The notes under the pieces were generated by a model that had not been told where the DNA came from, made no database searches, and saw only the letters and a program-made list of their open reading frames with translations. From the NCBI GenBank assembly GCA_015039365.1, contig WION01000081.1:1-64000 (forward strand): a stretch of 64,000 bases of DNA. The letters are read 5' to 3'. The stretch comes from Amanita rubescens (Eukaryota; Basidiomycota; Agaricomycetes; Agaricales; Amanitaceae). Shown here one piece after another: positions 886 to 62,056 of the stretch; position 1 is the stretch's first letter, and every line of letters starts with the position of its first letter. The position numbers and the translations under genes are program-made.

Positions 886-1250
886 GTGTAGTTGGAAGAG
901 CGTAAATTCTCCAACTCGAATGAAGAGAGAAGCACACAACTGATAAACGGCACAGAAAAGCCTTTGAAGCTGGCAGGCCAAACAAAGAGCCTTTTCCACC
1001 CATCTTCCCATCGAAGCACAAGACTTGACGTCAACCCCACGAGTACGACAACAAAATGGAAGGGACGCGTATGGCCCAACCAAAGAAAATGCTGGCAGGC
1101 ATGTATACGTATTACACCCTTACTTCCCTGAGCGGCGACACCAATCCTGGCACACAATGGTGTTACACAATTAATTGGAAAGCCTTTGTCACATTCATCG
1201 GGATTGTTCTCTAGTGTAAAGTGCTGTTCCGAGAGGGTCCTGTCTGGCTG
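886..1250. repeat. Dispersed repeat, inverted copy at 28560-28925
   Basis: About 350 bp that recurs in reverse complement at 28560-28925: the same run from the blocks around AACAGCACTTTACACTAGAG and AAGCCTTTGTCACATTCAT to CGAATGAAGAGAGAAGC is seen in both, with scattered differences. It has no credible coding frame. In this copy it lies directly beside a decayed kinase, and the other copy lies about 1.2 kb from another. It is probably part of a larger dispersed element or segmental duplication. Confidence 0.75.
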
Positions 1251-1918
1251 TTACTGTTGGTGAGCGCTGAGGATTTGCATCATGTTAGTCAGTTCATGCA
1301 TCCGAGATGCTACAAGAGAACCTACCGGCGCCCGCATCTTTAAATTTAATTGCCAACACACAACCTACCTAGTTCCGGTGGTTCAAGGGCGCCATCAACA
1401 CCAACCTCTGTCCATTGAGGCAATACCGACGGCCTGCTTAACCGCGCCATGTGACCGGTTTGAGGAGAACCCGCTTGTCCCTCGTCAGGTAAAATCGGAA
1501 TTTCCAAACAGAATCTTTCTCTACCGATGTTAGTTGTTGGCTTGGGGTGCAATAGTTCAAGTTCTTTAGCGCTGACGGGCTCCTCGGAGGATTCAACGGG
1601 GAGAAACGAGGTGAGTCCGCGCGGACCGACCACGTGCTACTGACGTGGTATTATTTTTCACGTGAAAATGGCATATATAGAACAGTCGCGAAGGTCAGAG
1701 ACCGTCAGACACGACATGGCGCAGACACCCCGCATACCCACCGAAGTTATCCGCGAAGCCCTGAACTTAGGGTGACGCATAAACGACGCCTAGTGCACCG
1801 CTGTTGACCGATCTTTCGAGGTCTTTTGTATCGGAAAATAGAGGAATACATTAACTAAGGACGATGTCATCCACAAAGCTAGATATATATAAGGTACCAT
1901 CCTCCTGGGTAAAATACA

Positions 1919-12721: not shown

Positions 12722-15700
12722 CTATGTACTCGTACGAATGGTATCCCACCCCTCCGCAACATCCTTTTCATCCTCTATTTCAACATCTGTCAGACCCTTC
12801 AGCCAAGCTTGCATATCCTTATCCCGGATCAAACCAGCCCTCAACCACTCCCCAACGCACAAGACAGACCTAACGGTCTGGACTTTCAGCCGATTTCTGA
12901 CATAAGATAAAACAAATCGGCCACGAGAAAACACACGTTCGACATCAACTGTCGAACCTATGCAACATTGTAAGATAGAAGAGCTGAGGAATGATCATAG
13001 TAGCTTACCGGGGATGCATAGATAGTCCATTGCCATAGCCGAGAGTTTCGGGTAAGAGTCGCGGTGGTCTCTCCACCATCGGAACGGATCGACGGGCTTA
13101 TTTGAATCATCAAGCCTCACAACATCGGTGCTGAGGTACAGCGCCAGCTCGTCCTGTGGCTCTGATGATGGTCCCACCAGTGCGCCGCTAGTCTGAGTCT
13201 CCGTGATGAACTTTTCAAACATATTCTCCGAAACCGAGGTGCGCTCAATGCGGAGTTGGGGGTTATCAAGCTGGTACCGAGGATTTTGAAGTCAGTACAA
13301 TTACAAAAACAATATACTATAGTATATAAAAGAGTCACGCACCATGATTACATCGTTGTCATCTTCAGGGTCGTGGCGAGCATCGTCGTAGGTATGTTTT
13401 GTTAGTACTTCCTTTACGAGTCTCTGGGCTTCAGTTATCCAGTTCTCTTCCCATTTCATCTTCCGAAAGTATGATAACTTGTACCGGGGATCAAGTACTG
13501 ATGTTAGGTTTGTAAGTAATGTACCGAGTGAGTGAAAGTAATTTAGCGTACTCATTGCGATGCGGTACACGTCGGAATAGTCAGTTTTGCTGTAGTAGCG
13601 ATTGAGCGTGCGCTTTCCGATCCTAACGGCTGCATGGATGGCTGCCGAGTATTCAATTGATACCATTGCCGATGCTAAGACTTCATCGAAATGGTCTATT
13701 GCGGGTATTACGCTCGTGATGTTTGAGATCTTGGATCTTGAGAAGTAAGCGGTCGCATCATTGAATACCTATTAAGTAACGGTTAGTTAATTATTGTCGA
13801 GCGTGCATTGAGCGCACGGCACTGAATACTGTACTCACCTTGAGCACTTTGCACAGTTGCGTAGCGAGGATCCATTCCTCGTCATCCACTTCATATTTTC
13901 TCAGATCCAGGGCGCGCTCGCTTGTGAGCATGTCGATGACAGTCCGGTACTTTATCGCAAACTCGAGCATCTGATAAGTTGAGTTCCATCGGGTGCTGAC
14001 ATCCCGGGGCATGTTCTTGTCATCTAGGCCACATGTCTCGCAGATTTCCCTCCAACGGGGAGTAGCGACAGTTGGTGAGTTCTTGAGTGCATAGGCGACT
14101 TTGCGTAGCTATTTAGAGAGGTCGTTAGTCGAACCCGGTACCCAGCGGCGCCTGTGCGGCACAGGCTAATGCAAACGTGGACCAACAACGCATAAATGTG
14201 GACCAACAAGGGCACATTGCCTTGGCATGCCAAATGTGGACGTACATACCTTGACTAACATTCGTCTCGCAGGCAGCACGTCTCTCTCCAACGCTTTCAG
14301 CTCCTCGCTCAGCATGCTCCTCCGCTCATCAATCCAGCCGTCATCTTTGTCTTTCTCTCGATCTTCCGGCGGTACCTCCGAGTCATCCAGCTCATCCAAT
14401 TCATCTTCCCCGTGATCACCGGCCAGATCACTGATTTCTGCCAGCAGATCTTGAAGATCGGAGTCGTTGTCGCCACCTGCTGCAGCAACATCATCTTGAT
14501 TTGCCTGATTTCTGCTTTGTCCCTTCTTTTTCGGTGTATCGAACTGAGAAATGACACTTTTCGCTACTAGATTAATGATGTGTGCAAAACATCGGACTCG
14601 TGAGGCCTCTCCACCAAAGGAACTTAGTCTATCTCTGAGTTCTTCGACCATGACTTCGTTGTTTGAGGCATTATCGCACGTTATCGCGAGAATCTAAATA
14701 TGGCAGTAAGTCCGAGTGTTATCTTACGAGCCGAACTATGATTTACCTTGTTTGAGATACCAAAATCATTTAGAACCTTTTCAAACTCGATCGCGAGCCG
14801 TTCTCCGGTGTGCCGCCTCCCCACCTCTACTATGTCAAGCAACCACTCACTGACAATACCATCAGTCTCGTATTGCACCGTGATGGCCATGTAAGCACGA
14901 CGATTAGGTGAGGTCCAACAGTCGGTGCCGAAATGTAGCGCGCCGTGGTGTTCCTCAGAGGTGAGTCATTTTCCAATGCCTTCAAAAACGTGATATACCG
15001 ACAACCTACCTTTAATAGTTTTGCTATCTTCTCCCGGGCCCGAACAAAGACATATCGTGCATCACGGGAGACAGTATCGGCGGGTGGAATGTATTGGTGA
15101 GGCCTCCCCGTCTTCATATTACGATGATAGCCCTTATCGTTGACGATCGCGAAAGGCCGTTGACTCTCGCATATCCATTTAACGTGGTTTACACGTACTT
15201 CAAGATTTGTAGGGGTAGTTGTTGGGTAAGTAACGGTCTCTTGCCCTGCTTTTTGAAAGGCCAATGCAATTGACCCGTTTCGTAGATTATTCTTGTCCTT
15301 CAGCACATTTCGGGCTTGATCAAGACTCTTCACGGTCAGGGCTGCATCTACTATGTCCTTACCATAGCACCGGGTAGCGTGAGCCTTCAAATTAGACGTA
15401 GATGTCGCATTTGCGGAATCGATGTTACGCTTGACCAACCGGCCTTTTGTATTCCGGCAAACCTTTGCCGCACATTCAAAAATGTGGAAGCGCTTTTTAT
15501 TCTCCTTCCCGTATGTGGGTGGTAGGAAGAAAACGTATATGGGAGATTTGTAGGTCTTATATAGCTTGTCTACCGGGACTTAGTTGACGTTGATCACGAT
15601 ATCAGATATAATGATGCACCTAGTTTGTCTTGAGAGTCCCCTAAGTTTCTGGGTTGCCCACCATCGTCGTTATCATCCTCGGCATCGTTATCAGGTGCCT

Positions 15701-16599: not shown

Positions 16600-19500
16600 C
16601 TACTTGGCCTTGAGAAGCTTGTTCAGTTCTTGCTCATAATAGTGTGTAATTTGATGCTGAGATCCCATAACTTGTTGCATAGTGTGGACTGCACAAGATA
16701 GTAAAGACTCTGCCTCATCAAACCTTTTCTGACTTGTATATGTCAAGGCCAAATTGGCCATGACTTGGAGGGTGTTTGGATGTTCTGACCCAAGCTTTAT
16801 TTTCCATGCATGCATAACTTCCACCTGCAGCTTCTCTGCCTCATCTGACCTTCCCTGATTCTGGTATGTGAATGCCAAATTGTTCATGGTTGTGAGAGTG
16901 TCAGTATGGGTTGATCCCAGCTTTACTTTCTGTGTATTCAGCACTTCTACCTGCAACTTCTCTGCCTCATCCCACCTTCCCTGATTCTGGTATGTTGATG
17001 CCAAGTTGTTCATGGTTATGAGAGTGCTTGGATGGTCTGATCCCAGCTTTGCTTTCTGTCTATTCATCACTTCCACCTGCAGTTTCTCTGCTTCATCCCA
17101 CCTTCCCTGAGATTGGTATGTTAATGCCAAATTGTTCATGGTTATGAGAGTGCTTGGATGGTCTAATCCCAATTTTACTTTTTGTGTGCTCATCACTTCT
17201 ACCTGTACCTTCCCTGCCTCATCCCAGCATCCCAGATTCTGGTATGTTGTTGCCAAATTGTTCATGGTTGTGAGAGTGTCTGGATGGTCTAATCCCAGCT
17301 TTACTTTCCGTGTATTCATCACTTCTACCTGCAGCTTCTCTGCCTCATCCCACCTTCCCTGAGAGTGGTATGTTATTGCCAAATTGCTCATGGTAGTGAG
17401 GGTGCCTGGATGTTCTAATCCCAACTTTACTTTCTGTGTATTCATCACTTCTACCTGCAGTGTCTCTGCCTCAGCCCACCTTCCCTGATTCTGGTATGTT
17501 GATGCCAAATTGCTCATAGTTGTGAGAGTGCCAGGATGGTCTGGTCCCAGCTTCACTTTCTGCATATTCATCACTTCTACCTGCAACTTCTTTGCCTCAT
17601 CCCACCTTCCTTGATTCCGGTAGGTTACTGCCAAATTGCTCATGGTTGTGAGAGTGCCTGGATGGTCTAATCCCAGCTTTACTTTCTGTGTATTCACTAC
17701 TTCTACTTGCAGCTTCTCTGCATCATCCCATCTTCCCTGGGTCTGATATATTGTTGCCAAATTGCTCATGCTTGTGAGAGCACTTGAATGGTCTGATCCC
17801 AACTTTACTTTCAATGTATTCATCACTTCTACCTGCAGCTTCTCTGCCTCATCCCACCTCCCCTGAGACTGGTATGTTAATGCCAAATTGTTCATGGCTG
17901 TGAGAGTGCCTGGATGGTCTGGCCCCAGCTTTACTTTCCATGTATTCATTATTTCTACTTGCAGCTTCTCTGCCTCATCCCACCTCCCCTGATTCTGGTA
18001 TGTTAGTGCCAAATTGCTCATGGTAGTGAGAGTGCCTGGATGGTTTGATCCCAGCTTCACTTTTTGTGTATTCATTACTTCTATCTGCAGCTTCTCTGCT
18101 TCATCCCACCTTCCCTTAGACCAGTATGTTAATGCCAAGTTGTTCATGGTTTTGAGGGTGCCTGGGTGGTCTAATCCCAGCTTTGCTTTCTGTATATCCA
18201 CCACTTCTACCTGCAACTTCTCTGCCTCATCCCACCTTCCCTGATTCTTGTATGTTGTTGCCAAATTGTTCATGGTTGTGATAGTGCCTGCCAGGTGGTC
18301 TGATCCTAGCTTTACTTTCTGTGTGTTTATCACTTCCACTTGCAGCTTCTCTGCCTCATCCCACCTTCCTTGGTTCTGGTATGTTGTTGCCAAATTATTC
18401 ATGGTAGTGAGAGTGCCTGGATGGGCTGATCCCACCTTTACCTTACATGTATTCATCACTTCTACTTGCAGTGTCTCTGCCTTATCCCACCTTCCCTGAT
18501 TCTGGTATGTCAATGCCAAATTGCTCATAGTTGTGAGGGTGTCTGGATGGTCTAATCCCAATTTTACTTTTTGTGTATTCATCACTGCTTCCTTCAACTT
18601 CTCTGCCTCATCCCACTTTCCCAGATTCTGGTAGGTTACTGCCAAATTGCTCATGGTTGTGAGAGTCCCTGGGTGGTCTAATCCTGGCTTTACTTTCTGT
18701 CTATTCATCACTTCCACCTGCAGCATCTTTGCTTCAACCCACCTCCCTTGATTCCGGTATGTTAATGCCAAATTGTTCATGGTTGTGAGAGTGTCTGGAT
18801 GGTCTGATCCCAGCTTCACTTTCTGTGCATTCATCACTTCTACCTGCAGTGTCTCTGCCTCATCCCACCTTTCCTGACTCTCATATGTTAGTGCTAAATT
18901 GCTCATGGTAGTGAGAGTGCCTGGATGATCTAGTCCCAGCTTTACTTTCCGTGCATTGATCACTTCTACCTGCAGCTTCTCTGCCTCATCCCACTTTCCT
19001 TGGGACCAATATGTTAATCCCAAATTGTTCATAGTTGTGAGAGTGCCTGGATGGCCTGATCCCAATTTGACTTTTTGTGTATTCATCACTTCTACCTGCA
19101 GCTTCTCTGCCTCATCCCACCTTCCCTGATTCTGGTATGTTGAAGCCAAATTGCTCATGGTTGTAAGAGTGCCTGGATAGTCTAATCCAAGCTTCAATTT
19201 CTGTGTATTCATAACTTCCGCCTGCAGTTTCTCTGCCTCATCCCACCTTCCCTGACTTTGGTATGTTAATGCCAAATTGCTCATGATTGTGAGAGTGCCT
19301 GGGTGGTTGGATCCCAGCTTTACTTTTGGGTTATTCATCACTTCTACCTGCAGCTTCTCTGCCTCATCCCACCTTCCCTGATTCCTGTATGTTGATGCCA
19401 AGATGCCCATGCTGACAAGAGTGTCTATGTGATCCAATCCAAGGTGTGTTTTTCTTTGATGAATTGTAACATGTAATAATTTTTCTTCCTCATCCCAGCT

Positions 19501-21060
19501 CCCAGCATGATTGAATACAAGTGCAAATCTTGCATATTCATCATCATAATACTTGCTGTTCAATTTTAATTCCAACCCATGCACAAAGTTTGATCTAACA
19601 TGTGGTGCAAGTGATTGACAGAATTCATAATTATCAAGATTCCAGTCAAGAGCTATTGAGCAGGACAACAGTGCTCTTGCTCCGTAAAAGCAATCAGCAA
19701 CTTCTGCCTTTGGTATGCAGTTCCTACTCCAGGCATTTACTAGTAGGTGCATGGAGTACAGGTGATTGGGACTCCTGATAAAAGAGAATGAGAGTAAAAC
19801 TTGAATGCCATGTAGAAATTTCAATTTATCCCACTCTCCATCTCTTCCTATGAACAAAGTTTCATTATCCAGCAAACTCAATGATGATGAAAAATGCATG
19901 TAATTCTCAATATGTCTTTTTGTGTAGTTCTCAGCAGCATATTTGAATAATTCTTGTGGTATATTTGTATGATCTAGGAAAGCAAAGGCTCTCAAGATCT
20001 TGATAGCAGTTTGTGCTCCAGCAGATTCCTGCAAATTATCCTTTGCAGCCATATCCTCCATCTTTTTCATGGAAATGTCCCATGTTCCAAATGTAGATGT
20101 CCCATAATCTGAAGCACCTCCAAATCCTGGAGTATTCTCCATTAATTTATCCTTGTGTCTTGTGTACAATTCCAAATAACCATTAATGCTGCAACCACAG
20201 GAATGCATATATGCTCCTGCTTGGTCAATTGCAAGAGGGATTCCACCCAATTGTGACACAAGTTGCAGGGCCAGATTATAGATATCATCATCTGTGTCAT
20301 CAAACATGGCTGACTTCAGAAGCAAGGAAATGGCATCTTCATCATCCATGCCATGAATCTCCATTGAGTTCCTGAATGTAAACCTCTTCAACCCAATATT
20401 CCTACTTGTTATCATGATGTTTCCCTCATGTCCTGGTGGGAGGAATTTTTCAACTACTGAGTAATGCCCATCTGCTCCATCATATATCATCAGAAAGTTG
20501 GGCCTTTGGGAAATCCATTCAAGAGCAGATCTGACTGAGGGTTTACCATCTGATGAAGTATTGTAGGTTGAAGATATCTGTGTGAGTACAAATTCAACAG
20601 TTTTCTCTGAATAAGCATCAATCCAGAATATGTCAGAAAACCTTGAATACATTGTAGTTCAATTATTTTGAATTACTAATGTTTAAAATACTCACAGACC
20701 AGCACATTCTTCAATGAATTTGAGGCAAATCTGAGTCTTGCCAATGCCACCTAAACCATGCAAAAGGAAAGTTGTCCTTTGACATCCAATATTGGAGGTA
20801 AAGTGATCCTTCAGCTTCTCCAAGTATTCATCACGGCCTGTGAAGAAAGTACTAGAATTTTTTATAGGAGGCAAAGGAGGCAGATCAGTGTCAGAGGAGT
20901 TTGTAATATAGTAGTTAATCTATAAGTTCAACAAGTTTTTGGGATGAAACATATGAAAAGGCTGAAACTCAAGAACCTCGATAAATTGGCTATCTGTAAT
21001 AACAGCATTCTGGTATCCTGCAAAGATACTAGTATTCGCAATCCAAGGAGGATTTGACAT
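16600..21060 (-). CDS. STAND P-loop protein with long TPR array (fungal NLR-like)
   Basis: Signal-transducing ATPase with numerous domains, the fungal counterpart of NLR receptors; a sensor role is inferred from architecture only. Exon 1 starts at ATG 21060 (MSNPPWIANTS). Exon 2 carries FFTGRDEYLEKL and the Walker A site HGLGGIGKTQ (about 20740-20765). A 54-nt intron with the Leu codon split (CT|G) joins it to one exon at 20641-16600. That exon has the Walker B-like FLMIYDGAD (about 20485), the GLPL-like GGIPLAIDQAGAY (about 20220), a winged-helix region, then about 23 TPRs of 42 residues, and ends LNKLLKAK. The N-terminal effector domain expected of an NLR is very short (about 60 residues). 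The TPR part is one uninterrupted frame, so the gene looks functional. Confidence 0.88.
16700..19500 (-). repeat. Tandem 126-bp TPR repeats
   Basis: About 23 copies of a 42-residue TPR with consensus LTTMSNLALTYQNQGRWDEA then EKLQVEVMNTQKVKLGLDHPGT. One unit (about 18280) has a one-codon insertion (DHLAGT). Copies are highly alike at the DNA level. The differences concentrate at a few positions: the residues after TY (Q/R/W/E/K/H, then N/S), position M-S/N-N, and the MNTQ/MNRQ/MNMQ/MNTW site. This is the pattern of concerted evolution with diversification on one face. Confidence 0.9.
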
Positions 21061-40433: not shown

Positions 40434-43400
40434 CATCAATGTGAGTAATCAGCTGATAGAGTAATGTGAACAAGTCTTGATGACTGGAGTGCAAAACATC
40501 AGGAGTGATATCAGTCTTCTTCAACTTCTGAAAATAGCCTTTCTGTTTGTATTGATGCAAGGCTCGGTCAGCTGAGGCCAGAAATGGTAGGCTGATCCAA
40601 AAGGATAGCTTGGCAATGATAATAATTGCTTCAAACTTTAAGCATAAATATGTTAAATGAAAGGATTAGTTTACAAACTAAGACTTGGCAATGATTAGGC
40701 TTGTTGCAATGGCATGAGTTGTGCACTACCCCATAAAAAAAACAAAAATACCTTGACCATACTGAAGTCCCCTTCAATCACTTCATATGTACTTTTTGCA
40801 TATTCAGGAAACATTGATAAAAGTTCACTCTGACCATGAGAAGGGATAAAATATACAATGTAGTATTATAGGACCTACAAGCTGCCATGCAGACAAATAT
40901 CAAAATCAATACTTCATGAACTAGCACTGCTCACCTGGAAATCAAGGAAAGTCACATAAGTGAGAGAAATGATGACATGAGGTGTGTATGGGTGAAATGA
41001 AATCTTACAATCTATGATGATAATAGTGTAAACATGAAAATGGAAAAGATATGGCAATGTGCAACATGCTCACTGTCCGCTATACATATATGTATGAAAC
41101 ATTCATGAATTGTGGTATGCTGAGAATGCAGGTCAGAAAATGTGCATGAATGTCACTCACTCACCATTGGTCATAGGACAAGATGTGACTCAGATGAGAC
41201 TGCCATTCACAAAATGTGCAATCTCTGGCACTCACAAACTGTTTGTTGTACATAGAAGAAGAGACCGTGATACTAAGACTCCTTTCACAAAATGTAGACT
41301 CACAAACTGTTAATCATAGGAAAAGATACAGTGATGAGACTTTGTTTTACAACATGTGCACTCTTTAAGAACTCACATCCTGTTGGTCATAGTAGGAAAA
41401 GATATGATGAGACTGCCTTTCACAAAATGTGGGATGCCACTCACTCGCTGTTGGTCATAGGAAAAGATGTGATGAGACTGTATTTCACAAAATGTGCAAT
41501 CTCACTCACATACTGCTGGCCATAGGAAAAGATCTGATTTGAAAAATGTGCAATGACACTCACTTGCTGTTGGTTATAGGAAAAGATGTGATGAGACTGC
41601 CTTTCACAAAATGTGCAATGACACTCACTTGCTGTTGGTTGTAGGAAAAGATCTGATGCAACTGCCTTTCACAAAATGTGCAATCTCACTCACTTGCTGT
41701 TGGTCATAGGGAAAGATATGATGACATTGCCTTTCACAAAATGTGCAATCTCACTCGCTGTTGGTCATAGGAAAAGATGTGATGAGACTGCATTTCACAA
41801 AATGTGCAATCTCACTCACTTCCTATTGTTCATAAGAAAAAGGTGTGGTGAGGGTCGAGGCTGCCTTTCACAAAATGTGCAATTCACCCACATCCTGTTG
41901 TTCATAGGAAAAGATGTGATTAGACTGCCATTCATAAAATGTGCAATCTCACTCGCTGTTGATCATATGAAAAATCCTGATGAGACTGTTTCACAAAATA
42001 TGCATTGTCACTCACACTCTGTTTCATCATAAGAAAAGACTGATAAATTTTCCTTTCACAAAATGTGCAATCATGCTTACTTGCTGTTGGTTATAGGAAG
42101 AGATGGGATGAGATGGTGTTTCACAAAATGTGCTATCTCACTCACTGGCTGTTGGTTGTAAAAAAAAAGTGGTGAGAGTCATGAGACTGCCTTTCACAAA
42201 ATGTGCAATCTCACTCACTTGCTGTTGGTCATAGAAAAGATGTGATGAGACTGCCTTTCACAAATGTGCAATCTCACTCACAAGCTGTTGGTAACAGGAA
42301 AAGATCTGATGAGACTGTTTCATAAAATGTGCAATCATCTCACTCACTTGCTGTTGGTCACAGGAGAAGATCTGATGATGATGTGTTTCACAAAATGTCT
42401 GCTGTCACTCACATCCTGTTGGTCATAGGATGAAACTGGCTTTCATAGAATGTGCAATCTCACTCACAAACTGTTAGTCATAGATAAAGATGTGATGAGA
42501 CTGCCTTTCACAAAATGTGCAATCTCACTCACAACCTGTTGGTCATAGGTAAAAATGTGATGAGTTGGACTGCCTTTCACAAAATGTGCAATGACACTCA
42601 CTCGCTGTTGATCATAGGAAAAGATGTGATGAGATGGCTGTGCAATCTCACTCACAAACTGTTGGTCATAGGAAAAGATGTGATGGGAGTGCCCTTCACA
42701 AGATATGCAATCTCACTCACATACTGTTGGAAAAGATGTAATGAAATTTCTTTTCCCAAGATGTGCACTCACTTGCTGTTTGTCAGGAAAAGATGTGACG
42801 AGACTGCCTTTCACAAAATGTGCATGACACTCACATCCTGTTAGTCATAGGAAAAGATGTGATGAGACTGCCTTCACAAAATGTCCAACCTCACTCACTC
42901 GCTGTTGGTCAGGAAAAGATGTGATGATTGGACTGCCACTCACAAAATGTGCAATGGTGCTCACCTGCTATTAGTCATAGGGAAAAATGTGGTGAGACTG
43001 CCTTTGACAAAATGTGCAATCTTGCTCACAAGCTGTTGGCCATAGGAGAAGATGTACATATGAGACTGCATTTCACAAAATGTGCAATCCCACTCACTCC
43101 CTGTTGGTCATAGGAAAAGATGTGATGAGACTGCCTTTCATAAAATGTGTGATCTCACTCACAAGCTGTTGGTCATAGGAAAGGATGTGATGAGACTGCC
43201 TTTCACAAAATGTGCAATCTCACTCACAAGCTGTTGGTCATAGGAAAAGATATGATGAGACTGCCTTTCACAACATGTGTGATCTCACAGTTCACTCACT
43301 CGCTGTTGGTCATATGAAAAAATCTGATGAGGCTGCCTTTCATTGTCACTCACTTCCTGTTGGTCATAGCAAAGATCTGATGAGACTGTTTCACAAAATG

Positions 43401-46400
43401 TTCAATCTCACTCACAAACTGTTGGCCATGAGAAGAGATCTGATGTGACTGCCTTTCACAAAATGTCCAATCTCACTCACTCGCTGTTGGTCATAGGAAA
43501 AGATCTGATGAGACTGCCATTCACAAAATGTGCAATCTCACTCACTCCCTGTTGGTCATAGGAAAAATATGTGATGAGACTGCCTTTCAATGTCACTCAC
43601 ATGCTGTTGGTCATAGGAAAATATGTGATGAGACTGCCCTTCCACTTTCAATGTCACTCACTTCCTGTTGGTCATAGGAAAAGATCTGATGAGACTGCCT
43701 TTCACAAAATGTGCAGTCTACCTCACTTCCTGTTGGTCATAAGAAAGTATGTGATGAGACTGCCTTTCCATGTCACTCACTTTCTGTTTGTCATATGAAA
43801 AGATCTTCAGCTGAGACTCCCTTTCAATGTCACTCACTTGCTGTTGTTCATAGGTCCAGATCTGATGAGACTGCCTTCCACAAAATCTTCAATGTCACTC
43901 ACTCCCTGTTAGTCATAGGGAAAATAAGAACAGTTATTCAGAAAATTTGCAATGTTACTCACATACTGTTGGACAGGCAAAAAATTGGATAAGGTCATTT
44001 TTTGAACCACTAGACCAGGATGACATGCTGCTAACCTTCTATGTTTATAAGGAAAGATGTGATTTCACTGCCTTTCACAAAACCTGCAATCACCTACAAT
44101 CTGTAGAACAAAATAATGTTTCTAAATCATCTTGCATCAGAGTGGTCAGCATCACTCACTTCCTTTTACATAGAATGAAATTAACATGATGAGTAGGGAA
44201 ACAAGAGAACAATGCCACTGACTCTCTTTTTCCATAGTATTTCATATGATGAATTCACATCTCACAAAAGTATACATACATCCTGTTTGTTTTGCAATGG
44301 CTTGTGAAGAGACTTTGAAAAGGACAAATATTTACTGTCTGTTGTTTTGGGACAAGATGTAATGTTTATAGGCAAATGGAGGAAATGTCACTTACTTCCT
44401 GTTATTAATCCAATGAAATTTGTTAAGACTCTCTTTCAGATAACAGTAGTCACCAACTTTCTATTGTTCATTCAGTCATGTCTCATAAACTCCACAAACA
44501 TAATGTTGCTTACTTTCTTTAAGCAAGTCAGATGCAGTGTGAGGCAGTGCTGTATTAGTACTCACTCCCTGTGCATGAGAGACTGGATTGGTGACAAGTC
44601 TGCTCACAATGATAATTAACTCACTTCCTTTTGGTCATATGATCACCATGGGATAATCAAATCAAAATTGATGATGTCACTCACTTCCTGTAGATCATGG
44701 GATAAGATTGCTGATTACAACAGGAAGTATTACTCACAAACTGTTGTCATCAGACAATATGTCAGGTCTATGATAGTTCAATGTCACTTACCCACTGGTA
44801 TCAATAATATTAAATCCTGCCACCAAAATATGGTAAAAACTAACCTGTGTTTCATTCTCTTTATTGACCATCTGAAGCATGACTAATCTCATTTTTGTGT
44901 GAAGGTATTGGAGTATTACTTACCTATGAATGAACTTTTTTCAAAAATTTTTCAATCCATATGTAGGCTACCTACCTCCCTGGACACCTATTGACATTTA
45001 ATTTTTCCTATGCTGATGTGCAGTTTCACAAAAAGGTATACCCAGAAATGTGGAAATTTTGAAAAAACTATGAGAATGACAGTATCCCATCCCCATTTAT
45101 ATTTCAGAACATGTCTGAACTATGTCAATGTTAGTAAGTGACAAATTTATGTGACCCTCACTGAAGTGCAGATTTAACACAAAGGTCAACATTATTCATC
45201 TGTGTTGAAACAAACAGCTGATGTATGCTGTCATCATCTATTGCACCAGCAGTTTGCTGAGTTAATTCAGCACAATTATTCTCTGGTAAATCTGTGTCTA
45301 TGAAACAGCATTACTCCCATTTTTTTTGGGAAGAAACCCCATCTTTCTCACCTTCCAATCGCACATATGCTTTGGGAGGGTATTTGGCATCCAAAACTTT
45401 AGGGAGATAAATGTTCTGAAAAGTGATTTCAGCAATTTCTCTGGCTCTTGCCCACTTATCTTCATCATTTGCATCAGTCAAGTTGATGAAATTCACTGGC
45501 TATTTGACCATCAAATTTAGTGAATATAACCACCAAAGGAACTGTGAAGGAAATATTTGCTAGTCAGTACTAGTAGAATTTGTGGCAAGTTAGCCAATGG
45601 AAAGGAGGTAACAATAGTTAAGACAATCTCTCCAAAACCAACTCAAGATGAGATATGAAGTCATTAGGACTTACCTTGGCCTGTCCCTTTATTAAAGAAT
45701 TCAAGTTCTGCAGGTAGAATGGGACGAGGGCTGTCCATGGGTATACAGTACCTGCAGGAAACCAGGTCAGCCATTACTGTAAAGGGATAAAGCAAGATAC
45801 CAAATTGTATGCAGTTGATTCTTCAGTTCAGTTTCTGCAGACTTCTTTTCAATGAACTTCCAAGCAATCTCCAATTCCTCAGTCGAACCAGACTCAAAAC
45901 CCTGAGAGTCATGGAAGATAAAGTTACTTCCAGGGTATGTAATTTGATGCTCAATATCATGCAGCCCTCTCTGTTATCATTCAAGCATGTGAACAGGTGC
46001 ATCCAAACATCATTATTCATTATCTGACTCACCTCAACTGATGGCATCAAATGAATCACAGACTGTTCAAGCTGTTTACCTGCAAGAAACTTAACAGTCA
46101 AAGGAAGCACAAAACTTAGACTGACTCACCATCCTTGTCATATATGATGGGCTTTGTTGCCTTTGCTACACCACAAACCTTCTCAAGGATAGTTGTCTTG
46201 CCTGCATTAGCCCTTCCAATGACAAGGATGCGAAAGTGTGGGCATAAATAGTGCTCCCTGAGTATTTGAACATGTGCTTCATCTGGATCTAATCATATAC
46301 TATATATCAGTCACCTAGGCTGAGCCACATAAATTAGCCTACTCAAACTCAAAGAAGGTGCACCAGTTGCCATAGCTGTGCTAGGAACACGAGTTTGTAT

Positions 46401-54578: not shown

Positions 54579-57500
54579 TTAGATGCAAATAGCCAAATCA
54601 TATAGAAAGGTAGTCAAAGCTTTTTTGTCAGAAGGCAAAGATTCAGAAGTAATCTGCATCTTGAGTTTGCCCATATAGTCTTGTTCCTTGAACTGGGTAA
54701 GTGCATCTTGTAATGACACAAGGAGTGGCTTCCTTATGGAAAATGACAGCTTGGCAAGGACAACCATTGCTAGCATGCACAATATCAATTCAAAAACATA
54801 AATCAAAGCATTGTGTATTACAGGCTAAGATTTGGAAGGCTACAGGCTGGTTACATTATGTCAGCTGTGTACTACAGGCATAAATATGACTCTTACAGTT
54901 TCTTCAAAATTTGATGGAGCATCTCCAAACAAAGAGAGAAGTCCAGTCTAGCAACTAGAATGAGTGGAATATCAACTTAATCTGGTAATGGCACACAAGC
55001 TAAGTACTCATTAGCATGTATATCAACCTCTTGTGTGTTTTACCACTGACCTAGAGAACCAGTATGATAGCACATGTCATCAGAATGTACTTTGAAGGCC
55101 ATGTATGTATAATGCCATACAATCTATGGATAATAGTGAGTGTGAATGTGGAAGAAGATAGAAAAGACAATATATTTTCTTACTTGCTGTTTGATGGGAT
55201 ATATTGAAATTGGACTCCATGGCAGGAAATATTGCAATGATTACTCACAGCCTGTTTGTATAAGGATGAGATCTGAATTCAATGCCACATTACTCACAAA
55301 CTGTTTGTCAGAGTATTCAGGGTATGAGATATGGTCAGGCCAGGTTGGAGGACAATGAAAACAGTGGTGCACCAACAATCTGTTGGTGGATGGAATTAGG
55401 GTACATCATACTATACGGCTGAAACCAGTGTGGTGCTACTGACTTGCTGTTTTTGAGTTGTAACATGACCAAGCCAAATAGAATCAAAACATGTTGTGTC
55501 ACTTACATCCTGGCAGTCTTAAATGAGACCAGTTGGGATGAAAAAAGATTGGTTTTGTGCTCACAAGCTGTTCATCACATGATACAGTGTGTTTAGAGTG
55601 CATTGTAGCAGAGCTATACTGTAGAATCACTAACTTGCTATTGCAACAATTTTGATTGGACTGCCTGGAGATGGTATTATACAGTGTCACTCACTTGCTG
55701 TTGGTCATGGGATGTGATGTGATTAGAGTTCTAAGATAAAACTCTACAATATTGCTCACAAACTGTTGCTCATTGGGAGATATGATTAGACTGACTGGGA
55801 AAAGAATACTGCAGGAGCACTTACTTGCTTTTTTGAATTGGGTGATATGTGACTGATTGATTTGCAGAAATTACTGGAGTCCCACTCACAAACTGTTCCA
55901 TGTGGAATAAGATATAATCACATTGTCTGGAACAAAAACCACATTATCACTCACTTTCTGTTAATTGGTGCATAACAAGGTATATGATTTAATTGTTTGA
56001 CATAAAAAAGCTGCATTACCACTTACAAACTGTTGGTAATTTTATGAGATTGGCTGGCAGCAGAACAAGGGAAATAGTATTATCACTCACTCCCTATTGG
56101 CTGTGAGAAGACTGAGTGGCAGAAAAACAAGAATTGCAGTATCACCAGTTGCTGTTGGTCATCAGATTTTATCATGCTGTTCTGCAGAAGATCAATGCAG
56201 CATCATCACTCACAACCTTTATGAAAGGACAACATTTGATTAAATTACCTGACAGAAGAATGTCTCAGACTCACTTCCTATCATTAAGGGATGGTATGAG
56301 CTGCGTGATTAACAAGGAAAAACTACACTGTCACCCACTTGCTGTTGGCAATGGGATGAACCATGTCATTATCTTATTGCCAAGCACAAACACAGTGCAA
56401 GCCTTATCACTCACTACCTGTGGTCCATCACAATTATGTTAGTAATGTGTGTGACCATTTGATGTAATCAGACATTGTGGCAAAATACATTCCAGTGCTC
56501 TCACCATCTATTATAAATGCATAAAACATGATTATGCTGGCTGCCAAAAAGTTTTCTGTGTCACTCACAGTCTTTTGGGATGAGGTGAGATTGCTTGGCA
56601 AAAACACTGCAGCATCACTCACCTCCTATTGGCCATGAAATGACAATGATTAGACCTGGCATAAAAAGGTCACAGAGTCACTCACCATCTGTTGGACATA
56701 TGACAAGTGTGATCACACTGCCTGCCAGAATATCACTCATGTCTCACTCACTTCCTGTTGATCATGAGAAAAGATTCAATCAAAGACCATGGACTCAGAA
56801 CATCACTATGGTAGTACTCACTTCCTGTTGGTCATGATATGGCATGTAACTAGACTATCTGAAAGTGCCACACACTTGCTAAAAACCAGCATAAATTAGA
56901 TTAACCTGGTTGCCTGGAAGAATAGGATGTGGTGACACTCACTAGCTGTTGATCATTGGATAAGGTGTAATCACATTATTGCATTACCACTCACTTGTTG
57001 TGGATCCTGGATCATGTATGTACATGAGACATGAAAACCTCTGGCAGTACAGTCACTCACAAGCTGTTAGTTATGCAATGAGGATCAGATAACTGCCCAG
57101 CAGACAAAAAATTGTGACACTCACTTCCTAAGATGCAACAATACACCACAAGACCAGGCTGCTTCAGCTTGGCTAAAAAATGGTGCACTGTTACTCACAA
57201 CCTGTTAACCAGATTTCATCAGACTCTCTGCTAGCATAGCACACCATCATCACCTACAAGCTATTGATTATCATTGCACAAAACATGATTAGGCTGCCTG
57301 GTTGATTAAGACTGCAAGTCACCTCCTGTTCATCATGGGATGAGTCTTGAAAATTCTCAACAGAAGAAACTGAAGTGACTCACAACCTATGGTCAATGTT
57401 GGGAGAAATAATCAGATTGTGTGGCAGAGAAAGACCACATTGTCACTGACTTGCTGTTGGTTGTGAGATAGGAAATAAAGACTCAAATCTTAAAGCCACA

Positions 57501-60500
57501 ATGCAATCACATACTATCTGTCACTCATTGTGTTGTGATCAGAATTTCTGCTTGGTGAACATTGCAATAGTATTATTTACCCGCTGTTGATCATGGTGAC
57601 ATGTATTCAGACTGCTGGGAAATGGTGAGTCCACTGCCACTCACAAGCTAATCAACATCATGAGACTTTTTCAAAATGACCATGCAGAAACATTGCAGTC
57701 TCACAAGCTATCAATTAGCACATGAGATGTGATGATAGTAGCTGGAACCAAACTATTATTACTAACATCCTGTTATCATAGAATGTTGTGATCAGATCAC
57801 TGAAAAAAAAGTGCAACTATGTTACCCACAAGCTATTGATCATGTGAAGAGATATGGTCAGACAGCATGAATAAAATGTTGCAACATTGCTCACCCACTG
57901 TAGATCATATGTTGAGACAAGACAGCTAACAGAAATCACTGCAATATCACTCACTCTCTGTTGGTATGGTGTAAGATGTGGTCAGAGTGAAGATACTGCA
58001 GTGTTACCCACTTCCTATTTGTCATGGAATGAAATACCTATCATCAAGCTGTATGTGAGAAGACAATGCAGTGCAACTTACCCACTATTAGGGAAGCAAT
58101 TAGGTGTACTAGTCTATTCCCAGTGAAAATTTCATGGCAGAATTACTCACATCCTGTTGGTCATGAGGTTCCATGCAATCAGACTACAGTATCTGGCCAA
58201 AAGTACTGCTCACTTGCTGTTGGTCATGGGATGAAAAGTAATAAGACTGCCTGGCAGGCTTGAAGAGGGACAGTATTGCTTACCTCCTGATGGTCATGGA
58301 ATGAGTTGATCCAGCTACTTTGCAGAACAACATTGCAGTGACTGTACCCACTTGCTGTTGGTTACAGGATAGGATGCAATCAGATTTCCTGGAAACATAT
58401 TACTCACATCCTACATGATGAGATTTGGTCAGGTTGACTGACAGGAATTAGCCTTACTCACTGGCTGTTGTTGTATGATAAGAAGTAATCAGACTGGTTG
58501 GCTGCAAAAATTGCAGAATCACCCACAACCTGTTCCCACAGTGGTATGCAGTGAGATAATAATAAAAACCGTACAGCAGTGCAACTCACAACCTGTTGAT
58601 CACCAGGAATTTAATGGGATTGGCTCCCTGGTACACAAAGTATTTATTGGCACTTACAGTCTGTTCATGGTCACATAATGAAAAGAATGTATGGGAGAAA
58701 AATGCTGCAAGTACCACTTACATCCTGTTGGTCATGGAATTAGCTGTGATAAGGCTGCCAAAAGAAATCATTGGAATGTCACACACTTGCTGTTGATGGT
58801 GTGATGTGATGAGACTACATTTCTGAAGACTTGTGCAGTGTCACTCACCCACTGTTCATAATGGACTTGATGTGATTATACTGTTTTCATAAAGTATACC
58901 AGCCCTGCTCACCCACTATTGGAGGCAAAAAATTGAGCTGCAGGAAACAAAGCATGTACTCCTACTCACTTCCTGGTGGTCATGAAGATTGAATTTGATC
59001 AGACTGCTTTGCAGAACATCACACAGACCTCCTGTTATCACAGCATGGGATGGGATGTAAAAAACAATGCAGGATCACTTACAAGCTTTGGAATTGTACA
59101 TGGTATTACTATCAGAGTGCTTTGGACAAAAACTGCACTACCACTTACAACCTGTTTGTTGTGAATTGATATGGGAATTAGAATGTCTGGTGAAAGAACT
59201 CTAGACTGACAGACTGAGTGACAGGTGATTTGAATGCTTTAAAGAAACATAACTGAAGTTTCACTCACTTGCTGTTTGACATAAGAAGAAAAGTAGTTAG
59301 ATTGCCTTTTAGAAAAGGCAATGTCACTTGCCCACTATTGATCATGGGGTAAGTTGTAATCAGTCTTTCCGGCAAAAATGTTTTGCTCACTCCCTGTTGT
59401 TGAGGGGTGTTCACTGGGATATGTGAAAAGGATATGAGCACTACTCACAATCTGTTGGCCATGAGTGGTCAGACAGCCTGGAAGAAGCAGTTTTACTCAC
59501 TTGCTGTTATTGGTTATGAGTGTAACATGATCAGACCATTTACTTTTACTTGAGAGACATGTCACTCACACCCTGTGGCTCATTAATGAGATGTGATCAA
59601 ATTATCCAGCAGAAAATACAATAATCAGGCTACTCACCCCCTTTTTGTTATGTGATAAGATGTAAATCATGGACTGCATGACAGAAAAGCACCCAGAGTT
59701 ACTCACTTGCTATTTGTCATGAGACATGTTATCAGATTGTGTCCAAGAAAACTGTAAGGAAACACTAGCATCACTCACAAGCTATTGCCCATGGGATGAG
59801 GCATGATCAGATCACCCACAAGAAAAATATCACAGCATCACTCACAATCTGTCAATCATAGGTGAGATGTATCAGACTGTCTGACAACAAAGGAATGCAG
59901 CATCACTTATGGACCTTCTGTTGACAAGGGATACAGTGGATGTGGTTACATTGCTCAATAGAACACAGCAAAATTGCCCTCACTTGCTGTTGGTCATATT
60001 ACATATAATACAGAAATTGATTCAGTGGTGCAGAAAACCAAGGACTCCCAGCCACTCACCTTCTGTTGGAATTGGGGTGGGATTTGAATGTAATTCCTGG
60101 TAAAAAGGTGTGTAACTCACAAGCTATTGATCACAGCATGAGACATGATCAGATTGTCTGCCAAAGCAAAATGGCAGCCTTACTCACTGTCTAATAATCA
60201 TAGGACAAGATTCCATTAGACTGCCTGGTGAAAAAATGACAACTGGTGAGTCATTTACTTGCTGTTGGTCATGATATGTGACATGATTAGACTGCCTGGC
60301 AGGAAAAAAAAGACTTTATGTTACTTACTGACTATTAATCATGTCAGAAATGTAATCAAGCTGTCTGGAGGAAACACAATGCAGGATTACTTACATTCTG
60401 CACATAATATGATCAAACTGTTAAGGAGAAAATATTGCAGTATTACTCACTTCCTATTGGTTATAATGAGGTATGATTGAACCTCCCAAGAAAATAAGGC

Positions 60501-62056
60501 TGTGACATCACACACAAGCTGTTGGTAATGTGATGTGATGTGATTAGAATTTCTAAAACGCTGCAATATCAAGTCATATTTCCCACATTTGGTTCATCCT
60601 GTTCCATGTGCTATGATTGAGCACATAAGCATGCAAGGGCATGTTATTATACTTACAACCTATTAGATGCTTCAGCTGTTTGCAGTGTGGCTCATTTGTA
60701 TTGAAGGAACATACTGCTAAAATACTCTGGTGTTTATCTTAAGTCTTTGACAATTCTTGTTAGTATGTATATGCCACAGACTCACCCAATAATGTGGAAA
60801 GTTGATCAGAACCAACATAAAAACTATCTTCCATTTGGAATCTTTTGCAGCTAAAACAGATCTAAAGATTGTGAAATTCAGATTGATGTTCATACATAAT
60901 GTGATTCTTACTCAAGTGCAACTTTGATGCAAATGTTGACATTGTTCATCTGTGTTGAGACAAACAACTGCAGAAGACTAGCATCATCAATTACATCAGC
61001 AGTCTTTTCAGTCAATTCTGGACAGTTATTCCCTGGAATGTCCATATCTGTTGGATAACTTAGGATTTCCATATATTATTATATATTTTTTATTTCCACC
61101 TTCCAATCGCACATAGGCTTTTGGGGGATATCTTGTGCTCAGAACTTTAGGAAGATAAACTCCCTGAAAAGTCTTATCAGCATTTTCTCTTGCCTTCTCC
61201 CACTTATCTTCAGCTTCATTCAACTGAGTAGACTCTTGAATTATTTGACCATCAAACTTGGTGAATATCACTACCAAAGGCACTGCAAAGGTCTCAATTA
61301 GTGGAAAGTTCCAAGGAAGGCTTGAGAGGCAGCTTGCCAACTCAACCAAATATTGACAATAGTAAGGACTAACCTTTCCCAATACCTTTGGTGAAAAATT
61401 CAAGTTCTGCAGGCAGAAGAGGACGAGGACTGTCCATGGGTATGCAGTACCTATAAAAAGCATAACCATCTAATGTTGTAAAGAATGAACAACAAAAAAT
61501 ACCAGATTGCATGTAATTGATCCTTAACTCGAGTTGCACTTAACCTCTTGTCAATGAATCTCCAAACATTCTCCAACTCCTCACTTGCACCAGATTCAAA
61601 ACCCTGAGAGTCATGGAAGATAAAGTTACTTCCAGGGTATGTAATTTGGTGCTCAATATCATGAATCCCTCGCTACAATCTCAGATTGCATCTGTTTCAG
61701 TCATTTGTTCTCATGAGTCAACTCACCTCCATTGTTGGTGTACAAATTTATTGTGGAAGGAACCAATTGTTCACCTTAAACTCACTGAATACATGTAAGT
61801 AACTGAGTGTTTGGTTTACTCACCATTCTGGTCATAAATGATAGGTTCTGTCCCACTCTCTACACCACAGACCTTCTCAAGAATGGTAGTTTTGCCTGCA
61901 TTGGCCCTTCCCATGATAAGAACACGAAAATGGGGGCATTTGTATTGTTCCTTAAGTACTGTGATATATCCCACATCAGTCTCTGCAGGGCACAAGGGGC
62001 CACCCCTTATATTTCAAAATACCTGATACATGTGCACCAGCCTGAGTCTCTGCCAT
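54579..62056 (-). CDS. G-domain protein copy 2 with single-codon microexon array
   Basis: Complete paralogue of copy 1, about 7.5 kb. Exon 1 at 62056-62023 (MAETQAGAHVS, phase 1). Exon 2 at 61982-61824 holds G1 (LIMGRANAGKTTILEKVCGV). Further exons give EQLVPSTINLYTNN, then HDIEHQITYPGSNFIFHDSQ with G3 DSQG, WYCIPMDSPRPLLPAELEFF, and G4 VVIFTKFDGQI with YPPKAYVRLE. The next exon, about 61050-60910 (phase 1 in), reads MDIPGNNCPELTEKTADVID and QLFVSTQMNN. A small exon ends STLL plus G at 60790, and a candidate 2-nt exon (CA, 60715-60716) resets to phase 0. Then 86 microexon units, an exon IVWHYTYMAFKVHSDDM (about 55120-55050), TGLLSLFGDAPSNFEET (54944-54894), and the final exon from 54824 (PVIHNALIYVFELIL...AKLSFSIRKPLL), stop at 54579. 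The phases I could check agree, except one junction near 55050. No frame break was seen in the G domain. Confidence 0.8.
55184..60659 (-). repeat. Array 2: 86 microexon units, 84 of them exactly one codon
   Basis: Unlike array 1 the introns (about 50-87 nt) have diverged, keeping AG-NNN-GT, a mid-intron GGCAGTCTAATCA-like block and an AACAG end. Units in transcription order (lowest + coordinate, residue): 60657 V, 60587 DEPN (12 nt), 60516 L, 60451 E, 60395 N, 60329 S, 60259 Q, 60188 T, 60121 L, 60060 K, 59984 Q, 59915 K, 59846 I, 59779 L, 59707 Q, 59638 G, 59570 G, 59501 Q, 59449 I, 59391 G, 59332 W (GC 5' site), 59269 Q, 59211 S, 59149 V, 59083 L, 59029 E, 58970 E, 58913 W, 58849 W, 58787 Q, 58722 D, 58658 T, 58590 V, 58527 V, 58462 P, 58408 D, 58352 Q, 58284 E, 58214 Q, 58151 D, 58082 W, 58012 E, 57955 R, 57895 W, 57830 L, 57767 D, 57705 L, 57645 L, 57581 R, 57511 Y, 57451 Q, 57384 V, 57323 E, 57258 L, 57199 V, 57125 E, 57061 L, 56995 Q (3' AG lost), 56943 L, 56876 Q, 56822 E, 56752 E, 56686 M, 56623 E, 56569 T, 56505 M, 56415 V, 56339 Q, 56275 E, 56214 V, 56146 QL (6 nt), 56091 G, 56027 F, 55955 K, 55890 F, 55825 Q, 55760 F, 55695 Q, 55635 Q, 55565 L, 55507 D, 55444 Q, 55377 I, 55298 F, 55249 A, 55184 Q. 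No stop triplet. Confidence 0.83.

What the first reader, a model, noticed from the sequence alone, without database searches (positions are those of the whole stretch)
55184..60659. A gene in which more than 80 consecutive amino acids each appear to have their own 3-nt exon
On the minus strand 86 successive units read AG, a short exon, GT. 84 are exactly 3 nt, one is 6 nt and one is 12 nt, all multiples of three. Intron interiors have diverged strongly between units, yet the AG-NNN-GT spacing is retained in all but one, which is hard to explain for an untranslated satellite. The array sits between normal exons of a G-domain gene that enter and leave in phase 0. Exons as small as 3 nt are known individually, but I know of no described gene with a run of one-codon exons on this scale.
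Basis: partly seen in the sequence, partly recalled or inferred. Interest (0 to 1): 0.98.

Follow-up and report, generated by a model that had tools for sequence, protein, structure and literature searches.

The report
Mushroom gene with one-codon exons
In a mushroom genome that is probably Amanita rubescens, at least twenty related genes, most of them GTPase-like, carry runs of three-letter exons, one per amino acid, and protein records from related samples that read the same residues without interruption indicate that splicing very likely joins these single codons into an ordinary protein segment, a gene layout for which our searches found no earlier description.

Summary
Minus strand 60659-55121 carries about 85 units of AG, a 3-nt exon (rarely 6 or 12), GT, with introns of median 62 nt. 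PWMs trained on other arrays find 67 such units; 200 shuffles give at most 2. The family is genome-wide: 1,869 exact CCAACAG-NNN-GTGAGTGA sites, reversed control 0. A stop fills the triplet in 1 of 1,869. Spacings of 5, 7 or 8 nt never occur, against 17 of 6 nt and 6 of 9 nt.

The decisive test was homology. The joined exons of a sister array, searched against 5.8 billion proteins, gave one hit, P0121 (164 aa, 1,033-nt JGI contig): E 2.2e-31, 69% identity. It runs from before the array into the C-terminal domain. Called triplets match it at 43 of 55 residues; 1,000 unit-order shuffles reach at most 72 against 215. So one-codon exons are real and very likely translated. No transcript of array 2 itself was found, and that the JGI contigs are cDNA is inferred from their length. 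The array segment is predicted to be a helical stalk on an IRG/dynamin-like GTPase. Eight literature searches showed no precedent for such runs.

The parts
60786..62056 (-). Upstream exons of gene A: likely start codon (62056), G-domain exons with P-loop GRANAGKTT, and the last pre-array exon 60861-60786 (ESVLAAKDSKWKIVFMLVLINFPHYW), ending in phase 0
   Evidence: read by eye; G-domain homologs
55184..60659 (-). Array 2: run of one-codon exons (about 84-86 units) separated by introns mostly of 51-73 nt; concatenation is open
55121..55123 (-).
55049..55052 (-). Zero-nucleotide splice site (tctctag|gtcagt), a candidate recursive splice site between the ATT and CTT exons
   Evidence: by eye; a like site 57 nt after the ATT exon in L049, L050 and L053
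54997..54999 (-). CTT one-codon exon after the zero-nt site (TGT or TTT in sister genes)
   Evidence: by eye
54897..54947 (-). Post-array exon TGLLSLFGDAPSNFEET, resembling PELFSLFG... of P0121
   Evidence: by eye
54588..54779 (-). Exon of the C-terminal helical domain of gene A
   Evidence: 53% identity to P0121 97-161
45158..46288 (-). G-domain exons of the paralogous gene B
41236..44794 (-). Array 3: 58 one-codon exons, WFEEGKKETDREIKYGQKEEHGRFERLLGLQRDQYFRVFDQLQPQSRDERQQQYRDFF, opening with the linker motif seen in P0008 and P0050
40430..40860 (-). Post-array exons of gene B (SELLSMF... and the C-terminal domain)
   Evidence: read by eye

Best explanation
These are very likely coding genes in which a stretch of about 50 to 85 amino acids is written as single-codon exons between introns of about 62 nt, and splicing is predicted to join the codons into a helical stalk between a GTPase domain and a C-terminal helical domain. 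Shown: the unit anatomy, its spacing and stop constraints across the genome, and intron-free homologous proteins that read the concatenated triplets of sister arrays in order. Inferred: because a 3-nt exon can hardly be defined across the exon, each intron is probably recognised on its own (intron definition, strong GTGAGT donors and a shared TATGACCAACAG acceptor) and the introns are removed one after another; zero-nt AG|GT sites shared by paralogs fit such stepwise removal. Inferred: codons at the 5' end of an array are old and shared between paralogs, while the 3' part is gene-specific and was built by amplification of the same intron family, so that the encoded stalk can change in length and composition without losing frame. 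The cellular role is untested; an immune or self-recognition GTPase is the leading guess.
For: Genome-wide: 1,869 CCAACAG-NNN-GTGAGTGA sites, reversed control 0; 1 of 1,869 triplets is TAA, TAG or TGA, against about 5% expected from independent positions (0 of 557 parsed triplets, 28.5 expected). Spacing: 3 nt 1,869; 0-2 nt 18, of which 14 in one contig; 4-9 nt 32 = nine of 4 nt, seventeen of 6 nt, six of 9 nt, none of 5, 7 or 8; reversed control 2. Blind search: the joined L049 array region returned only P0121, E 2.2e-31, 69% identity over 96% of the region, in 5.8 billion proteins. P0121 spans the array and continues into the C-terminal domain. PWM-called exons of L049, L050, L051 and L053: E 3e-24 to 1e-23, 76-78% identity over 55 residues (L049 and L051 are near-identical copies, L050 and L053 close ones). 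Unit-order permutations reach at most 72 against 210-215; other frames and displaced triplets at most 28, reversed order at most 34. P0039 independently: E 6e-15 and 9e-14. In five fetched loci P0121 residues 73-164 match contiguous DNA and 1-72 do not; all 150 genome-wide places listed fall within residues 71-164. AG and GT are unchanged at 192 of 192 positions while intron interiors differ at 204 of 1,982 between L049 and L050. In L042 four adjacent groups of odd-length exons add to multiples of three (AT,CA,GA; CA,A; CA,GA,GA; AAGT,CA). AlphaFold2 of P0121: helices 8-29, 32-42, 45-78 over the array part, mean pLDDT 78.
Against: No transcript from array 2, or from any locus of this very genome, was found; the JGI records come from relatives (69-92% identity by region) and their being cDNA is inferred from length (P0121: a span that takes about 4 kb in L049, on a 1,033-nt contig). 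P0039, which matches the same exons in direct comparison, was not returned by the search, perhaps for its word filter. Array 2's own peptide has no significant match. Codons in L049/L050 change about as often as intron interiors (15 of 156 against 204 of 1,982), so codon-level purifying selection is not shown there, and in the array-3 subfamily AG/GT are not wholly frozen (8 of 876 differ). L041 is out of frame at its 3' end in all four parses and L042 in two of four; in L042 the adjacent pair GTTT,A adds to 5. Loose calls gave stop triplets in L046 (last unit) and L037, not followed up; one TGA stands in C537.
Confidence: 0.93

Rival explanations
1. The arrays are non-coding satellite DNA inside one large intron; the AG-NNN-GT look comes from the repeat consensus.
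For: Array 3 is a tandem repeat of about 65 bp by TRF; some arrays (L041) are almost perfectly homogeneous.
Against: Triplet stops 1 of 1,869; spacings of 5, 7 and 8 nt absent and other non-multiples of three few; AG/GT kept in diverged arrays; triplets in order match P0121 and P0039.
Confidence: 0.03
2. Real codons, but decaying: most arrays are pseudogenes, and intact or intron-free relatives (such as P0121) carry the function.
For: L041 and perhaps L042 have frame problems; 19 codon changes and no synonymous one over the three pairs among L049, L050 and L053.
Against: Stop triplets are nearly absent. Synonymous change may be blocked by splicing: no parsed triplet ends in C (0 of 557) and few in G (41 of 557). 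The P0121 array peptide was not found uninterrupted in this genome (one search has no positive control of its own).
Confidence: 0.08
3. The arrays arose by an introner-like intron that inserted at every codon boundary of a continuous coding sequence, rather than by duplication of codon-plus-intron units.
For: In the youngest arrays many introns are identical whatever their distance while triplets differ (12 of 48 and 4 of 44 nearest neighbours share the exon; the rest include 6 and 18 pairs with exons of unequal length); odd-length exons look like introns placed inside codons.
Against: 939 of 975 exact 3' ends of the family are followed by NNN-GY-NNG, so the intron is hardly scattered through other genes; codon make-up is array-specific (mostly CAA, CTA, CGA in L041), as expected from unit duplication.
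Confidence: 0.35
4. Units spread by tandem duplication and the introns are then homogenised by gene conversion while selection keeps the codons different.
For: Intron identity flat with distance in six arrays; triplet identity barely rises even between the most similar introns (W3: 0.41 at 94% intron identity against a mean of 0.37).
Against: No direct trace of conversion was tested; in L041 and L042 triplet identity does rise with intron identity (0.54 to 0.72, 0.44 to 0.59); the allele-like pairs fetched (L039/L040, L043/L047, W3/L046) have identical codons and say nothing on rate.
Confidence: 0.4

Closest known systems
Single microexons, including 3-nt and 1-nt exons (Arabidopsis APC11, PMC4674806, passages seen; Drosophila homothorax 3-bp micro-exon, PMC7392893, and Fusarium CYP621A 1-nt exon, PMC12940212, start of abstract in the listing)
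   Same: Exons of one codon or less in spliced genes
   Different: Those reports describe a single such exon in a gene; here about 50-85 follow one another and make up a whole protein segment in a large family
Phlebia radiata gene models (PMC6540522, two passages seen)
   Different: Reported for gene models in general; the two passages describe no runs, no shared intron family and no hypervariable triplets
Schistosoma microexon genes (MEGs; listing, details recalled)
   Same: Genes built mainly of tandem short exons in multiples of three (recalled)
   Different: Exons are longer (6-36 nt, recalled), fewer, and in secreted proteins; no single-codon array known to me
Introners / introner-like elements (PMC9860276, passages seen; PMC4457414, start of abstract in the listing)
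   Same: Families of near-identical introns; the paper reports cases with insertion or deletion of neighbouring codons
   Different: Introners insert into many genes across a genome; this family is almost confined to arrays
Immunity-related GTPases (IRG) and dynamin-like GTPases
   Same: P-loop G domain followed by a predicted helical region; best PDB fold matches GM4951 and IIGP1
   Different: TM-score about 0.4 and about 10-16% identity in the rows shown; membership not established

Membership tests
Microexon-containing protein-coding gene | Very short exons (27 nt or less) included in mature mRNA in frame | tested here: met
   By homology: PWM-called 3-nt exons read in order match the intron-free P0121 and P0039; direct RNA from this genome not available
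Satellite / minisatellite DNA | Tandem units without coding constraint | tested here: not met
   Stop depletion, multiples of three, AG/GT conservation, protein homology
Introner / introner-like element | Same intron family inserted at many unrelated genes | tested here: not met
   939 of 975 exact family 3' ends are followed by NNN-GY-NNG; the 36 others were not inspected one by one, and only one exact 18-mer was tested
Introner / introner-like element | Target-site duplications or terminal inverted repeats | not tested
   Not examined
Schistosoma-type MEG | Symmetric exons of 6-36 nt forming most of a secreted protein (recalled) | tested here: not met
   Exons are mostly 3 nt and sit inside a GTPase-like gene
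Recursive (zero-nt exon) splicing | Conserved AG|GT site inside an intron | tested here: met
   tcag|gtragt 57 nt after the ATT exon in L049, L050 and L053, 3 of 10 loci scanned, the script's patterns giving no line for the other 7; by eye also in W2, W3 and L043; use in splicing not testable here
P-loop GTPase | Pfam G-domain above gathering score | tested here: inconclusive
   MMR_HSR1 above cut-off for P0087 only, 1 of the 3 scanned proteins that hold the G domain; precomputed PF01926 for 17 of 120 listed homologs; P-loop residues at least 90% invariant in 50 homologs
IRG / dynamin-like GTPase | G domain plus helical domain of that fold | tested here: inconclusive
   Foldseek E 5.7e-6, TM about 0.4; the array and C-terminal part is helical in the model

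The most novel reading that the evidence does not exclude
A genome-wide system of codon-resolution exons: a fungal recognition-type GTPase family whose stalk is stored as beads of one codon each, strung on near-identical introns, so that recombination or exon skipping can add, drop or swap single amino acids anywhere in the stalk while the reading frame is kept. It would be a eukaryotic diversity generator working at the level of one codon.
Probability: 0.3. Interest if true: 0.99.

Novelty: categorically new. Interest (0 to 1): 0.96.

Why it matters
Single 3-nt exons are treated as borderline curiosities of splicing. Here a spliceosome would have to handle dozens in a row, in many genes of one organism, which makes intron definition, ordered splicing and the lower limit of exon size directly testable. 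It also shows a state in which introns have cut a coding region into single codons, and suggests that gene catalogues of mushrooms miss such segments: of the A. rubescens records read, those that reach FPHFW/FPHYW stop there or within about 30 residues, and one (P0088) passes straight from FPHYW to the C-terminal domain.

Tried and rejected
First parses missed weak units and produced spurious exons of 1, 11, 12 or 15 nt; gap-filling on the splice-site score solved most. Gap-filling adds low-scoring 3-nt units by construction, so the homology tests were also read on permuted, reversed, frame-shifted and displaced controls.

A supposed two-unit difference between L043 and L047 was rejected: the L047 fetch simply ends earlier, and the shared codons are identical. 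Allele-like pairs were too similar to measure selection.

P0050's array part finds only itself in the protein collection; the searches for the home locus of P0050 and P0008 gave best matches of about 75-90% identity, so both probably come from another species. Array 2 against the other arrays and fetched proteins: nothing significant.

The idea that arrays reflect a genome-wide introner was weakened. Synonymous/nonsynonymous ratios were abandoned because third positions seem constrained by splicing. Pairing the 150 listed C-terminal places with a hand-picked list of G-domain places gave 82 pairs within 15 kb, all at least 2.9 kb apart, consistent with arrays in the gap but not proof.

Literature: eight searches listed no paper that, by title, abstract start or the passages opened, describes runs of one-codon exons.

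Full report
WHAT IS THERE. The window lies in a 75.7-Mb genome, G000, contig 767. Its contig lengths equal those of Amanita rubescens protein records (for example 123,375 and 1,667,397 bases), so the organism is taken to be A. rubescens; that name is an inference. On the minus strand, gene A probably starts at 62056, has a G domain (P-loop GRANAGKTT), runs to the exon ending NFPHYW at 60786, and resumes in 54947-54897 with TGLLSLFG.... Between the two lies the array. A parse allowing 3-, 6-, 9- and 12-nt exons gives 85 units between 60659 and 55121, 82 of them 3 nt, introns of median 62 nt. Concatenated, they read VDEPNLENSQTLKQKILQGGQIGWQSVLEWWQDTVVPDQEQDWERWLDLRIQVELVELDPQQLQEEMETMVQEVQLGFKFQFQQLDQIFAQI, without a stop; DEPN is doubtful and two weak units (59031, 57707) are left out.

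MORE THAN CHANCE. Splice-site matrices trained on other arrays find 67 3-nt units over 10 bits; the plus strand has 1, 200 dinucleotide shuffles have 0.135 on average and 2 at most, and positions 1-38000 of the window have no 3-nt unit over 10 bits on either strand. A paralogous gene B at 46288-40400 carries a second array of 58 one-codon exons.

GENOME-WIDE RULES. The 18-base pattern CCAACAG-NNN-GTGAGTGA occurs 938 + 931 times, its reversed control never. TAA or TGA fills the triplet once and TAG never. With 0-2 nt between the same flanks there are 18 sites, 14 of them in contig C749, 3 in C13 and 1 in C93. With 4-9 nt there are 32: nine of 4 nt, seventeen of 6 nt, six of 9 nt, and none of 5, 7 or 8 nt; the reversed control gave 2. 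In nine parsed arrays (557 triplets) there is no stop, against 28.5 expected from independent positions; no triplet ends in C, though a GAC is visible among the 100 places listed. These are the marks of a translated frame plus splice-site needs.

DECISIVE HOMOLOGY. Protein search with the G domain returned Amanita proteins and JGI records on contigs of about 1-2 kb, several of which span the G-domain exons without introns. P0008 and P0050 continue after FPHLW/FPHFW with ...LSETKWFEKGKKESDREIEYDG and ...LSEAQWFEHGKKDTDKQIVYDGE. The arrays of several loci open with nearly the same text, one codon per exon: WFEEGKKETDREIKY (array 3), WFEQGKKETDRETKYDG (L043), WFEQGKKKMDEIEYDG (L039). P0039 matches the called exons of L049 at E 6e-15 and of L050 at 9e-14. 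I then joined the L049 exons, a few residues by eye, and searched only the array region: one hit, P0121, E 2.2e-31, among 31 candidates; P0039 was not returned. P0121 reads VDRNQVTSSNEIKWFADAKKQADKEREYFESPEMRKRQVYGAWDRQEYDEELRKQHEDLANKIDAAAEEKICPELFSLFGHQS..., that is, from the exon before the array, through the array, into the C-terminal domain. Called exons of L049, L050, L051 and L053 match it at 76-78% identity over 55 residues, L052 at 84% over 45; these loci form two groups of close copies. Unit-order permutation (1,000 each) never exceeds 72 against 210-215; for P0039 it is 69 against 138-151. Other frames and triplets displaced by 1-3 nt give at most 28 for P0121 and 32 for P0039, reversed unit order at most 34 and 47. 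In tblastn of five fetched loci only residues from 73 on match contiguous DNA; the 150 genome-wide places listed lie within 71-164, and the array part alone gives nothing (without a positive control of its own). The I and C of P0121's ...KICPELF correspond to an ATT exon and, after a zero-nt site, a TGT exon in L049.

HOW MANY. Joining fetched sequences that are at least 96% identical over 800 bp leaves 21 groups with five or more called one-codon exons; eight groups were seen over more than 40 units, the others only in part. The G-domain query has 368 exon-level matches and P0121 150 listed places, of which 82 pair with a G-domain place from my hand-picked list upstream on the same strand, never closer than 2.9 kb. 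Some contigs are near-duplicates (L039/L040, 98.7% identical), so counts of places overstate gene numbers.

EVOLUTION. Between L049 and L050, AG and GT are unchanged at 192 of 192 positions while interiors differ at 204 of 1,982; of 47 comparable codons 38 are identical and 9 differ, all by amino acid, many to similar residues; over the three pairs among L049, L050 and L053 none of 19 changes is synonymous. In six loci of the array-3 subfamily the first 14-18 residues differ at 60 of 656 positions (pairwise, not independent), AG/GT at 8 of 876, interiors at 1,463 of 7,889. The 3' parts look gene-specific: array 3 aligns with other arrays only at its start. There triplets are far more variable than their introns: in array 3 introns 94% identical have triplets 41% identical by base, against 37% on average; in L041 and L042 introns that are identical still often carry different triplets, and intron identity does not fall with distance along six arrays. 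In L042 four adjacent groups of odd-length exons add to multiples of three (AT,CA,GA; CA,A; CA,GA,GA; AAGT,CA), so introns there seem to cut inside codons; a further pair (GTTT,A) does not, and the array closes in frame in two of four parses. L041 ends out of frame in all four and may be broken. The intron family is almost confined to arrays: 939 of 975 exact 3' ends are followed by NNN-GY-NNG. Whether units spread by insertion, duplication or duplication with intron homogenisation stays open.

WHAT IT DOES. AlphaFold2 of P0121 (9 sequences, mean pLDDT 78) gives helices 8-29, 32-42 and 45-78 over the array part and a helical C-terminal domain; P0039 (50 sequences, mean pLDDT 80) has a confident G domain and low confidence in the array part. 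Foldseek against the PDB ranks GM4951, IIGP1 and other IRG and mitofusin-type GTPases first, E 5.7e-6, TM about 0.4. A helical stalk on an IRG/dynamin-like GTPase is the working model; an immune or self-recognition role is a guess from family size and variability.

LIMITS. No RNA of this genome was available. The JGI records are from relatives and their cDNA nature is inferred: in L049 the stretch from the VDRN exon to the ATT exon takes 3.4 kb (644-4061), but the whole contig of P0121 has 1,033 nt. If they were retrocopies they would still record splicing; if they were never-interrupted genes, the triplets would still be conserved codons. Array 2 itself has no significant match among the other arrays and fetched proteins.

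NOVELTY. Single 3-nt and 1-nt exons are in print (PMC4674806, passages; PMC7392893 and PMC12940212, listing), and a basidiomycete genome paper mentions many one-codon exons (PMC6540522, two passages). None of the eight searches showed runs of one-codon exons or a gene family built on them; the library lacks most subscription papers. I rate it categorically new as a gene architecture, while its parts (GT-AG introns, microexons, zero-nt sites) are known.

Noticed in passing
L042 (C749:1500-7200) and L041 (C13:579600-585000): Exons of 0, 1, 2 and 4 nt mixed with 3-nt exons; in L042 four adjacent groups add to multiples of three, as if introns cut inside codons.
   Followed up: partly
L049, L050, L053 (57 nt after the ATT exon); window 55049-55052: A zero-nt AG|GT site between two one-codon exons at the 3' end of the arrays, shared by paralogs.
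   Followed up: partly
nine parsed arrays: No triplet of 557 ends in C and only 41 end in G; synonymous change seems blocked by splicing.
   Followed up: partly
L013, L014: W and F were parsed into one 15-nt exon TGGGTAAGACAGTTT, which looks like an intron shrunk to 9 in-frame bases.
   Followed up: no
window 16600-20658: Uninterrupted NB-ARC/TPR-like frame (name recalled) with about 21 copies of a 126-bp (42-aa) repeat, in the same window as the array genes.
   Followed up: no
G000 contigs, e.g. C35/C105 and C470/C767: Some contigs are near-identical pairs, possibly the two haplotypes of a dikaryon.
   Followed up: partly
window 14166-15579 and 13301-13768: Pieces that look like a broken hAT/BED-type transposon (impression from the ORF list, name recalled).
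   Followed up: no
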